From Deltaproteobacteria bacterium (GTDB lineage Bacteria > Myxococcota > JACPTQ01): a DNA stretch of 58,521 nucleotides. Shown one piece after another: positions 3,401 to 6,124 of the stretch. The notes beneath the pieces were generated by a model, which did no database searches, had not been told where the DNA came from, and saw only the letters and a program-made list of their open reading frames with translations. Positions within the stretch are counted from its first letter, which is position 1. Every line of letters begins with the position of its first letter. Both the position numbers and the translations under genes were made by a program. Where the stretch lies: NCBI GenBank assembly GCA_016192705.1, contig JACPTQ010000006.1:1-58521 (forward strand). Reading direction: 5' to 3'.

Positions 3401-3562
3401 CCGCTCCCGCGCCCGCATCCGCTACCGCTACCGCACCCGCGCCCGCATCCGCTACCGCTACCGCACCCGCACCCGCACCCGCACCCGCTTCCGCGCCCCC
3501 AACCGCTCCCGCGCCCGCTTCCGCGCCCGCAACCGCACCCGCTTCCGCGCCCGCTCCCGCTT
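3401..3562. repeat. (CCGCNN)27 hexanucleotide tract, intergenic
   Basis: 27 consecutive hexamers of form CCGCNN in unbroken 6-nt register; only the unit at 3497 departs (CCCCAA). The two variable bases are mostly TT, TC, GC, AT, TA, AC or AA. It fills most of the 347-nt gap between the RND operon and the first four-helix-bundle gene. It can be read as alternating-residue peptides in every frame, so the ORFs across it are not evidence of a gene. Sister tracts: 4439-4534, 5944-6051, 612-677 and 48762-48809. Confidence 0.9.
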
Positions 3563-3670
3563 TCCTTCGTTCGCGCCTCCTTTCTTGCCCTTGCCTCACG
3601 GGCTTGCCCTGACGCTTCGCGCCTTTTGGGCGAAAGCCCGTTCGGCTGCGGGCTTCGAAAGGAGTCCTTC

Positions 3671-4012
3671 ATGTCTCATCGGTTCATTGCTCTCGACGTC
3701 GCGTTTCAGCTTGCCGCTTCCGTCCGGCCCCTGCTCGATTCGCTTCGTCGCATAGATCGCAATCTCGAAGATCAGCTGCGGCGCGCAACGGCGTCGGTGG
3801 TTTTGAATTTGGCGGAGGGCGACGGAAAAAGTTCCCTTCGCGATCAAGCCCGCTACTTTGAGATAGCCCGCGGGAGTTGTCGCGAAGCTCGCGCAGCCCT
3901 GAAGCTCGCGGCGATATGGGGATACATCGACGACACGCAGGTCGCTGCGCTCGACACATTGGCCGATCGCTTGTGCGCGCTGCTCTCGCGACTTATCCAA
4001 CGAGTCGCGTGA
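3671..4012 (+). CDS. Four-helix bundle protein (23S rRNA intervening-sequence/bAvd-like family)
   Basis: 113 residues from ATG 3671, preceded by AAAGGAG at good spacing. The sequence shows the family pattern: LRRIDRNLEDQLRRATASV, then LNLAEGDGKSSLRDQARYFE, then IARGSCREARAALKLA. Small proteins of this type occur inside 23S rRNA intervening sequences, as accessory proteins (Avd) of diversity-generating retroelements, and as orphan genes; their basic helical bundle can bind nucleic acid. Here no rRNA or reverse transcriptase is nearby. The 3' end overlaps by 20 nt the 3' end of a second, convergent copy. An inverted repeat (GAAAGCCCG / CGGGCTTC) lies just upstream at ~3631-3660. Confidence 0.85.
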   Translation: MSHRFIALDVAFQLAASVRPLLDSLRRIDRNLEDQLRRATASVVLNLAEGDGKSSLRDQARYFEIARGSCREARAALKLAAIWGYIDDTQVAALDTLADRLCALLSRLIQRVA

Positions 4013-4351
4013 GCATCGCGATAACTCGCGAAAGCAGGTTGCCGAGTTCGCCTGGCGCATCGTCAATAAGGTCGAGCAATGCCGCCGATTCACACGCCTC
4101 GCCGCGGGCAATCGCATAGCAGCGGCGCTTGTCAGCTCGGGCCACTCGCCCAGCACCCTCGGCAACACATTGGTGAGGACCGACAACGACGCACGCCGAA
4201 ACTGATCTCGAAGCGCAGCATTCGCGATCGGGAGCCGCTGTGCCAGCCGAGCAAAGTCGCGAGCGACACGGAAGCAATCGAGGCGTTCGAGCGAGGCGGT
4301 AGCGGAAACGGTTGCGGTCGGGGTAGCGATTGCGGAATCGGGAAGCGGCAT
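3993..4351 (-). pseudogene. Four-helix bundle protein, frameshifted
   Basis: Starts at ATG 4351 with AAAGGAG 5 nt upstream. An N-terminal low-complexity part (ATPTATVSATAS) is encoded by the CCGCNN-type repeat. The family match then runs FRVARDFARLAQRLP to LRDQFRRASLSVLTN. At 4168-4165 the minus strand reads AATGTGTTGCC, where one GT removed would give N-V-A and continue into AEGAGRVARADKRRCYAIA and LLDLIDDAPGELGN, ending at 3993. The second half is in the +2 frame. So one GT dinucleotide duplication (or a sequencing error) breaks an otherwise complete gene. It is convergent with, and about as long as, the intact copy at 3671-4012. Confidence 0.75.
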
Positions 4352-4438
4352 AGGATCTCCTTTCGAAAGCGTGAGCCGAACCTTTCGGCCCCTAACCGAA
4401 GGTGGGCCGAAAGTGAGGCGAGCCGGAGAAAGCAGAAC

Positions 4439-4534
4439 CCGCTTCCGCTACCGCCCCCGCATCCGCTACCGCCTCCGCAACCGCATCCGCAACCGCATCC
4501 GCTTCCGCTCCCGCATCCGCTACCGCCCCCGCTC
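4439..4534. repeat. (CCGCNN)16 hexanucleotide tract, intergenic
   Basis: Sixteen perfect hexamers of form CCGCNN in register. It lies on the far side of the four-helix-bundle pair from the 3401-3562 tract and in the same orientation. The pair is therefore bracketed by the two tracts. The 444-nt gap 4352-4795 contains this tract and the phased array at 4585-4722; I see no gene in it. Confidence 0.9.
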
Positions 4535-4584: not shown

Positions 4585-4722
4585 GCGCAACGGGAGCCCC
4601 CCGCGATGAAACAAATGCCCCGCAGCGTGAAACAAACGCCGATCCGCTTGCAACAACCGCCTACGCCCGTGAAACAATCGACGCGCGAATTGAAACAATC
4701 GCGTTCTGGGGTGAAACAATCG
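4585..4722. repeat. 21-bp-phased TGAAACA array
   Basis: Six 12-nt cores related to GTGAAACAATCG begin at 4606, 4627, 4648, 4669, 4690 and 4711, exactly 21 nt apart. A degenerate seventh is at 4585 (GCGCAACGGGAG). Between cores the 9 nt differ. The period is two helical turns and also 7 codons, so any frame gives a heptapeptide repeat (plus strand VKQSxxx; minus strand RLFHxxx). It lies 74 nt beyond the stop of the esterase gene. It is not CRISPR: the cores are too short and there are no constant-length unique spacers. Confidence 0.85.
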
Positions 4723-4795: not shown

Positions 4796-6124
4796 CTACG
4801 GCATCGCAGCCAAGCGCGCGCGGAGCCAAGCGATCGATTCGTCGGTTCGCAAGTCTTTGCGCGCGAGGACGCCGAACGCGGTTGTGAGGTGCGTGCCGCC
4901 GGGCACAACTTGATAGTCGATCACCATGCCGCCAAGTCGTAGAGCCGCGACAAGTTGGTCCGTGAGCGACTGCATGACGGTTGTGTCGGCTGTGCCTTGA
5001 TAGATGCGAATCGGCGCCGATTGCGTAAACGCGCGCACAGCGTTTGTCTCGAACGCATCGTGCACAAACCCGTAAACGCCCCAAACGCGGTATCGATACG
5101 CCGCGAGAAACGCGGGATCGAACACGTCGGCCGGGTCTTCGGGGAATGAATTGAGAAGCGTCGCGCCGCCGGTCGGCGACCAGAGGCAGAGCGTCGTCAT
5201 GAGGTCGTCGATGCGCGCGGCCATCGCGGGCGTCCAAAGCGTCGCGCTCGTCGGCCACGAATAGAACTTCGACCAGGCATAAATGAGCATCGCGTGCATC
5301 GAGATGTGCGGGCCGGAGACCCAAACGCCGGGCGACCAGTGCGCCTCCCAAACCGCCGCGGGTGCCGTCGCCCCGAACGCGCGCACATCGAGGTCGGGGG
5401 CATACGACGCGTGAAGCGCCGCGGCCGCGAGCGTCGCGTGACCGCCCTGTGAGAGGCCCGCCATTGCGAATCGCCCAGACGTCGCGACACCCAACCCCCG
5501 TGCCAATTCCCGTGCGGCACGCAGCGCGTCGAGCGCACTCGTCCCCTCGACCCGCGACACAAGGTACGGGTGAAGCCCCGGCGTCCCGAGCCCCGGGTAA
5601 TCGACCGCGACGCCGATAAACCCGCGCGCGCCAAAAAGCCCCGCGTGTCCCGCGCCCAAGACCGTCGCGCTCGGCGCACACGGATCGTCGAGCCCAATCG
5701 TTCCGTGGTTGTTGCCGACGATGTGGAAACCAGCCACGGGCGGCGCGCCCGTCAACTCTTGTGGGATCGTGATTGTCGCCGTCGACTCGCGGCCGTCGGT
5801 CGCGTACCGCGCTATATAGATGTCGTAGCCGTTTTCAATCGCAACGTCGCGATCGACATACGTCGCAAGCACCGCGCGGCTGAATCGCCCAATAAACTTC
5901 ACCGCGCGCAGGCACCCATTTGTCGCGCATGCTGGGTCTCCAACCGCACCCGCATCGACACCCGCATCTGCTACCGCATCCGCATCCGCAACCGGAACCG
6001 CAACAGGGCCCGCGCCGACGCCCGCATCCGCAACCGCGCCCGCAACCGCGCCGCACCCCAGAACAGCAACGCCGCCGAGCAACAGTGCGCCCCGAGCGTA
6101 AAGACCACGGCTCCTCAAAAACAT
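4796..6124 (-). CDS. Secreted lipase/esterase-like alpha/beta hydrolase, lipoprotein
   Basis: 442 residues. Residues 1-24 are a lipoprotein signal (LLLGGVAVLGC, Cys24). Residues 25-62 are a low-complexity AGAVADAG/VPVADADAV linker encoded by a CCGCNN tract. The hydrolase domain follows. The nucleophile elbow is GLSQGG (Ser225); the likely acid is Asp380 in QGTADTTV and the base His412 in VPGGTHLT. The pattern resembles the secretory lipase (LIP) family: a substrate-binding lid region follows the elbow, and the TADTTV motif precedes the His. It probably hydrolyses ester or lipid substrates at the cell surface. It is followed by the 21-bp array. No strong ribosome site precedes the ATG. Confidence 0.8.
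   Translation of the reverse strand: MFLRSRGLYARGALLLGGVAVLGCGAVAGAVADAGVGAGPVAVPVADADAVADAGVDAGAVGDPACATNGCLRAVKFIGRFSRAVLATYVDRDVAIENGYDIYIARYATDGRESTATITIPQELTGAPPVAGFHIVGNNHGTIGLDDPCAPSATVLGAGHAGLFGARGFIGVAVDYPGLGTPGLHPYLVSRVEGTSALDALRAARELARGLGVATSGRFAMAGLSQGGHATLAAAALHASYAPDLDVRAFGATAPAAVWEAHWSPGVWVSGPHISMHAMLIYAWSKFYSWPTSATLWTPAMAARIDDLMTTLCLWSPTGGATLLNSFPEDPADVFDPAFLAAYRYRVWGVYGFVHDAFETNAVRAFTQSAPIRIYQGTADTTVMQSLTDQLVAALRLGGMVIDYQVVPGGTHLTTAFGVLARKDLRTDESIAWLRARLAAMP
5944..6051 (-). repeat. CCGCNN-type hexanucleotide tract within the esterase linker
   Basis: About 18 units in 6-nt register on the plus strand, more degenerate than the intergenic tracts (units such as CGACAC, CTGCTA, CCGGAA). 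Because 6 is a multiple of 3 it reads through the esterase frame as alternating Ala-X dipeptides, giving the linker between the lipidated Cys24 and the hydrolase domain. Confidence 0.75.

What the first reader, a model, noticed from the sequence alone, without database searches (positions are those of the whole stretch)
4585..4722. 21-bp-phased TGAAACA array between an esterase and a repeat tract
Six 12-nt cores at exactly 21-nt steps (4606 to 4711) plus a degenerate one at 4585, with variable 9-nt spacers. The period is two helical turns, so a protein bound to each core would lie on one face. It is also 7 codons, so any frame gives a heptad repeat; I cannot tell whether the DNA or a peptide is selected. 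It does not match CRISPR, iterons of a plasmid origin (no rep gene) or known operators. The array is beyond the esterase stop and close to a CCGCNN tract, in an accessory-looking island.
Basis: seen in the sequence. Interest (0 to 1): 0.58.

Follow-up and report, generated by a model that had tools for sequence, protein, structure and literature searches.

The report
Helix-phased DNA repeats after genes
A row of six short DNA sites spaced exactly two helix turns apart lies just past the end of a gene, and the same genome carries several other such rows with different site sequences, which suggests rows of protein-binding sites rather than a coded peptide; nobody knows yet what binds them.

Summary
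In detail: six TGAAACAA-like cores sit at exact 21-bp steps (4606-4722). The claimed seventh unit at 4585 is unconvincing. The core array occurs once in its 5.2-Mb genome, but it is not a lone oddity. In about 31% of the genome I found further intergenic arrays whose spacing is a multiple of 21 bp and whose cores differ: asymmetric cores at 21 bp, palindromes at 42 bp. Four array types (window, L292, C49 family, C10b) have sharply conserved cores and near-random spacers, which uniform decay of tandem duplications does not reproduce (at most 1 of 1000 simulations). One type has three dispersed copies with conserved cores (2/64 variable columns against 19/78 in spacers). Nine of 11 arrays lie within 75 bp of a stop codon facing them (1.6 expected). 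Several adjoin CCGCNN tracts, and the density is about 16-fold higher near convergent pairs of 23S-rRNA-IVP-type genes. The window's array is not coding and not RNA-structured. Best reading: a one-face row of DNA-binding sites at gene 3' ends. The protein and the role are unproven, and neutral minisatellite origin remains the main rival. REP/BIME, parS and CRISPR membership is not met; the iteron reading is unsupported.

The parts
4606..4722 (+). Phased array: six 12-bp cores (4606, 4627, 4648, 4669, 4690, 4711) at exact 21-bp steps, 9-bp variable spacers
   Evidence: core/spacer contrast not reproduced by even decay, 0 of 1000 simulations
4439..4534 (+). CCGCNN hexamer tract on the far side of the array, 72 bp before it
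4796..6124 (-). Secreted lipase-like gene (PF03583) transcribed towards the array; its stop is 74 bp from the array (start codon uncertain; my gene caller starts it at 6082)
3671..4012 (+). Gene A of the convergent pair, 23S-rRNA-IVP-type (PF05635)
3993..4351 (-). Gene B of the convergent pair, same type, broken by a frameshift
   Evidence: Similarity to B of sister elements; two reading frames; not found by the family search
3401..3562 (+). CCGCNN tract on the gene A side of the element

Best explanation
The array is a non-coding row of DNA sites. Each 12-bp asymmetric core would be bound by one protein unit, and the exact 21-bp (two-turn) step would place all six on one face of the helix, so that the bound units could touch and bind cooperatively. 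It belongs to a class of intergenic arrays in this genome, each with its own core: asymmetric cores at 21 bp, or palindromic (dimer-type) cores at 42 bp. They mostly sit just past a stop codon of a gene that runs towards them. The most likely role is a local nucleoprotein block at the gene's 3' end, separating the gene's transcription from what follows (here the tract and the IVP element). Shown: the phasing, the conserved-core/free-spacer make-up, the lack of coding and RNA-structure signals for the window array, the dispersed copies of one sister array, and the position after stop codons. Inferred: that protein binds, that binding is cooperative, and the barrier role.
For: Exact steps with near-random spacers. 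Sister arrays with other cores and periods that are multiples of 21. Core columns vary less than spacer columns among three dispersed copies: 2/64 against 19/78, p=2.7e-4. Nine of 11 arrays within 75 bp of a facing stop codon, 1.55 expected, 0 of 2000 random placements reach 9. No coding signal in the window array and no RNA folding signal there. Palindromic cores at 42 bp suit dimers, asymmetric ones at 21 bp suit monomers.
Against: No binding protein is known and cores differ between loci, so several proteins would be needed. The core/spacer contrast is significant for only four array types; C38 is borderline and C3, C19b and L323 are not. C3 may be coding. C10b has one 62-bp step and L289 steps of 22-23 bp. 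C19b and L323 are not beside a facing stop. The barrier role rests on position alone. No relatives are available to test conservation of the window array.
Confidence: 0.42

Rival explanations
1. Neutral minisatellite: local tandem duplication of a roughly 21-bp unit (perhaps promoted by the GC-rich tract) that then decayed, with no function.
For: Arrays differ in sequence from locus to locus, as expected of independent local duplications; C38, C3, C19b and L323 fit even decay (C38 borderline); tandem repeats of many periods occur elsewhere in the phylum (G031).
Against: Window, L292, C49 and C10b arrays are bipartite beyond even decay; near-random spacers yet no change of length within the window array; preference for multiples of 21 among intergenic arrays; conserved cores among dispersed copies.
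Confidence: 0.3
2. End or recognition repeats of a mobile element: the array is the trans-recognised end of a dispersed unit with the CCGCNN tract and IVP gene pair, moved by an enzyme encoded elsewhere.
For: C49 and C61 share gene B, leader, tract and array, with homology ending at the array's end; a third copy (C48) has tract and array only; arrays are about 16-fold denser near IVP elements.
Against: Most IVP elements lack an array; cores differ between loci; no Y1 transposase in the genome; target duplications were not examined.
Confidence: 0.13
3. RNA element: the array acts as a 3'-untranslated region of the upstream gene, as single-stranded protein sites or a termination signal.
For: Position just past facing stop codons; C10b folds better than shuffles (z -2.56).
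Against: Window array folds no better than shuffles on either strand; three of four sister arrays tested show no signal; RNA sites would not need exact helical spacing.
Confidence: 0.08
4. Coding heptad repeat: the 21-bp period is seven codons and a repeat peptide is selected.
For: 21 and 42 are multiples of 3; several frames are open through the window array; C3 has one open frame with a good codon score.
Against: Window frames score -0.40 to 0.03 per codon against a gene median of 0.22; variable columns in the C49 family are spread 8/7/6 over codon positions; no 18- or 24-bp steps in the clearly phased arrays.
Confidence: 0.05
5. ParB half-site array: the core GTGAAACA is one arm of parS (parS consensus recalled, not from a call).
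For: Three of six units carry exact GTGAAACA; the genome holds one parS-like site, TGTTCCACGTGAAACA.
Against: No palindrome in the array; the units continue as ...ATCG rather than into the second arm; sister arrays have unrelated cores.
Confidence: 0.02

Closest known systems
REP/BIME repeats (enterobacteria, Pseudomonas)
   Same: Intergenic, often tandem, palindromic in part, dispersed; BIMEs bind proteins such as gyrase and IHF and are linked to termination (PMC2817692, passages read)
   Different: Short cores at exact 21/42-bp steps, a different core at each locus, few copies, no Y1/RAYT-type transposase
Cooperative direct-repeat binding as by BldC (PMC5859096; title and start of abstract in the search listing only)
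   Same: Would work alike: a row of direct repeats bound by cooperative units
   Different: BldC binds at promoters (recalled); here arrays lie after stop codons, some between convergent genes; no binder is known
Plasmid iterons (recalled)
   Same: Direct repeats near two helix turns apart
   Different: No replication gene among the neighbours looked at; several unrelated cores in one genome; position after stop codons
Bacterial minisatellites / VNTRs
   Same: Tandem array, intergenic
   Different: Core conserved, spacer near-random in four array types
parS (ParB site; recalled)
   Same: Shares the 8-bp arm GTGAAACA
   Different: No palindrome; true parS-like site elsewhere

Membership tests
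REP/BIME (REPIN) elements | High copy number of one palindromic sequence (more than 100 per genome, abstract) | tested here: not met
   Window core array once; C49-type core at three loci only
REP/BIME (REPIN) elements | Y1/RAYT transposase in the genome | tested here: not met
   PF01797 0 matches; 5 of 14 control genomes ring; 96.65% complete genome
REP/BIME (REPIN) elements | Extragenic position | tested here: met
parS | Palindromic TGTTTCACGTGAAACA-type site (consensus recalled) | tested here: not met
   No second arm in any unit; one site within 2 mismatches in the genome, on C28
CRISPR | Repeats of about 25-40 bp with unique spacers of like length, near cas genes (recalled) | tested here: not met
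   12-bp core, 9-bp spacers; six neighbouring proteins scanned with Pfam, no Cas match
Iterons | Adjacent replication initiator gene (recalled) | tested here: inconclusive
   None among the six window proteins scanned; the rest of the genome was not searched for one
Cooperative direct-repeat operator array | Protein bound to each repeat | not testable with these tools
   Needs pull-down or EMSA
Cooperative direct-repeat operator array | Exact helical spacing of conserved cores | tested here: met
   Five of five steps are 21 in the window; core/spacer contrast
Coded heptad-repeat protein | Coding signal through the array | tested here: not met
   Window frames -0.40 to 0.03 per codon, genes median 0.22; C3 is an exception
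Neutral minisatellite | Even decay over the unit | tested here: not met
   Window, L292, C49, C10b reject it; C38 is borderline and C3, C19b, L323 do not reject it

The most novel reading that the evidence does not exclude
This lineage marks the 3' ends of many genes with phased nucleoprotein arrays that share a 21-bp geometry but carry a different recognition core at each locus, so that geometry rather than sequence is the conserved feature: an insulator or terminator code read by a diversified family of DNA-binding proteins, and spread together with hexamer tracts and IVP gene pairs. Phased TGAAACA-type arrays with palindromic cores in Bacteroidota, Armatimonadota and others would be relatives by design.
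Probability: 0.15. Interest if true: 0.78.

Novelty: new variant of a known kind. Interest (0 to 1): 0.5.

Why it matters
If right, a genome keeps the spacing of site arrays constant while changing the sites, which would make gene-end insulation in bacteria testable by simple means (shift the phase by half a turn and measure read-through). If the arrays are neutral, the strong preference for 21 bp would still need a mutational explanation. The repeated IVP gene pairs between hexamer tracts offer a concrete place to study how such intergenic DNA spreads.

Tried and rejected
Window-core search for further copies in the same genome: none. Because the scan fixed the step at 21, it says nothing about preference for 21. 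The viral scan gave 55 stretches, mostly inside long open frames.

IVP loci of other phylum genomes as a source of sister arrays: 20 stretches from nine genomes gave hexamer or heptamer tracts but no clear intergenic 21-bp array; weak lag-21 signals (L259, L263) look like glycine-rich or heptamer repeats or were not followed. A 400-kb sample of G071, scanned without a gene caller, showed tracts and coding-type repeats; one lag-42 and some lag-63 or lag-84 signals there were not followed up.

Rfam gave only a tRNA in the window. RNA folding of the window array gave no signal. My first gene caller failed and was replaced. Literature searches for known 21-bp phased intergenic arrays, IVP elements and hexamer tracts in this group gave no match; this covers open PMC papers only, by search listings.

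Full report
OBSERVATION. The six cores and their exact 21-bp steps are present as described. The pair pattern occurs three times in the 5,210,217-base genome, all within this array, and the reversed control not at all. With up to 3 mismatches over the longer core only the same place is found. Of 195 genomes searched in the phylum with two free gaps of 8-30 bases, eight have a match and only this one has 21/21. No close relative is held: the other 57 genomes share only the phylum.

SURROUNDINGS. The array starts 74 bp past the stop of a lipase-like gene (PF03583) that is transcribed towards it. On its other side is a CCGCNN tract (4439-4534), then a convergent pair of genes of the 23S-rRNA-intervening-sequence-protein family (PF05635), then a second tract. 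This block is a dispersed element. The genome has 35 PF05635 matches, which I count as 15 convergent pairs, plus the window pair, whose gene B is broken by a frameshift and falls below the search threshold. Both genes of a pair carry similar hairpin-rich leaders (by eye), and tracts flank most pairs.

SISTER ARRAYS. I scanned the flanks for any tandem period from 15 to 89 with CCGCNN tracts masked. The strong signals near IVP elements came at 21, 42, 63 or 84. With a codon-usage gene caller, six intergenic arrays in 182,029 bases near IVP elements (window included) have such periods: WIN, C3 (L204), C10b (L206), C49 (L210), C38 (L216), C61 (L218). A seventh element-flank signal (L203, lag 18) is a hexamer repeat. 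In 1,449,744 background bases nine intergenic signals were found: three with multiples of 21 (L292, L300, L323) and six others (lags 31, 54, 22, 24, 76, 54). That is 6 per 182 kb against 3 per 1450 kb, about 16-fold. C19b (L203, seven GGAGACA-type units at 21 bp) is below the threshold and was seen by eye; L289 has four units at 22-23 bp. C49, C61 and C48 (L300) are homologous copies of one array, so independent array types number seven above the threshold.

ANATOMY. Cores differ: GTGAAACAATCG (window, 21), GCGTGACGGAAGTGG (L292, 21), GCAACTCCG (C38, 21), palindromic GATATTTCGAAATATC (C49/C61/C48, 42) and a palindrome-like CCGTTCCGAGACGG (C10b, 42, one step of 62). In C3, C19b and L323 a simple core search does not return clean steps. 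Simulated tandem duplication with even decay, matched to the mean identity, reaches the observed core/spacer contrast in 0/1000 (star) and 0/1000 (tree) for the window, 0 and 1 for L292, 0 and 1 for C49, 0 and 0 for C10b; C38 gives 10 and 57, and C3, C19b and L323 are not significant. Among the three dispersed copies 2 of 64 core columns vary against 19 of 78 spacer columns (p=2.7e-4). The block shared by C49 and C61 ends within a few bases of the last unit, and the C48 copy has tract and array but no IVP genes.

POSITION. Of 11 arrays (the nine above, C19b and L289) nine lie within 75 bp of the stop codon of a gene running towards them; the window's is 74. Random placement in 382 gaps gives 1.55 of 11, and 0 of 2000 trials reach nine. 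The C61 stop comes from the ORF list, as my gene caller did not call that gene. Under a strict definition (five exact CCGCNN units) 4 of 82 tracts have an array on their 3' side and none on the 5' side; three more arrays adjoin shorter or imperfect tracts (C61, C48, C19b; read by eye). C38 and C48 lie between convergent genes, so a promoter operator cannot be the common role.

DNA, RNA OR PEPTIDE. Window frames score -0.40 to 0.03 per codon against a gene median of 0.22; variable columns of the C49 family are spread 8/7/6 over codon positions. C3 is the exception: one open frame scores 0.47 and it may be coding. The window array folds no better than shuffles on either strand; of four sister arrays only C10b does. 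I therefore favour DNA-level sites, with protein binding inferred and not shown.

ELSEWHERE. By a crude ORF test 49 are intergenic, and 16 of these 49 are within 75 bp of a facing stop. Some show variable spacers and palindromic cores, e.g. a Chitinophagaceae MAG (L095), an Armatimonadetes MAG (L017) and a Bacteroidetes MAG with two related copies (L056, L082). Because the step was fixed beforehand this is not evidence for a general preference for 21 bp.

KNOWN KINDS. REP/BIME repeats are the nearest in setting (PMC2817692, passages read), but copy number and transposase tests fail. BldC-type cooperative binding to direct repeats (PMC5859096, search listing only) is the nearest in proposed mechanism. 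CRISPR and parS fail on structure; iterons were only partly tested. The searches found no description of this array class.

VERDICT. A real, non-random, probably functional phased DNA array, one of a small class in this genome. Mechanism: one-face protein array at gene 3' ends, confidence about 0.42; neutral minisatellite about 0.3.

Noticed in passing
window 3401-4534; L203-L218: About 16 convergent pairs of PF05635 (23S-rRNA-IVP-type) genes with similar leaders, mostly between CCGCNN tracts: a dispersed element in its own right.
   Followed up: partly
L250-L257, L259, L260, L264: IVP gene loci in other genomes of the phylum are flanked by tracts of other hexamers (G071, G073, G079) or of heptamers (G024, G037).
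   Followed up: partly
starts of contigs C34, C49, C27 and end of C76 (L209, L210, L215, L205): The same roughly 150-base sequence abuts the gene A leader at four contig ends, like an insertion sequence that broke the assembly.
   Followed up: no
L289:826-913: An array of four GGGACAG-type units at 22-23 bp just after a stop codon, similar to the 21-bp arrays but one base longer.
   Followed up: partly
L204:2874-3224, L206:2489-3313, L216:1487-2674: Three arrays directly follow genes for proteins without a significant Pfam match that look helical by eye.
   Followed up: partly
L056, L082, L095, L017: 21-bp-phased intergenic arrays with TGAAACA-type, partly palindromic cores and variable spacers in unrelated bacteria; L056 and L082 are related copies in one Bacteroidetes MAG.
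   Followed up: partly
L220 (C28:25147): The only parS-like site found in the genome with up to 2 mismatches; few for a chromosome that uses ParABS, though the assembly is in 88 contigs.
   Followed up: no
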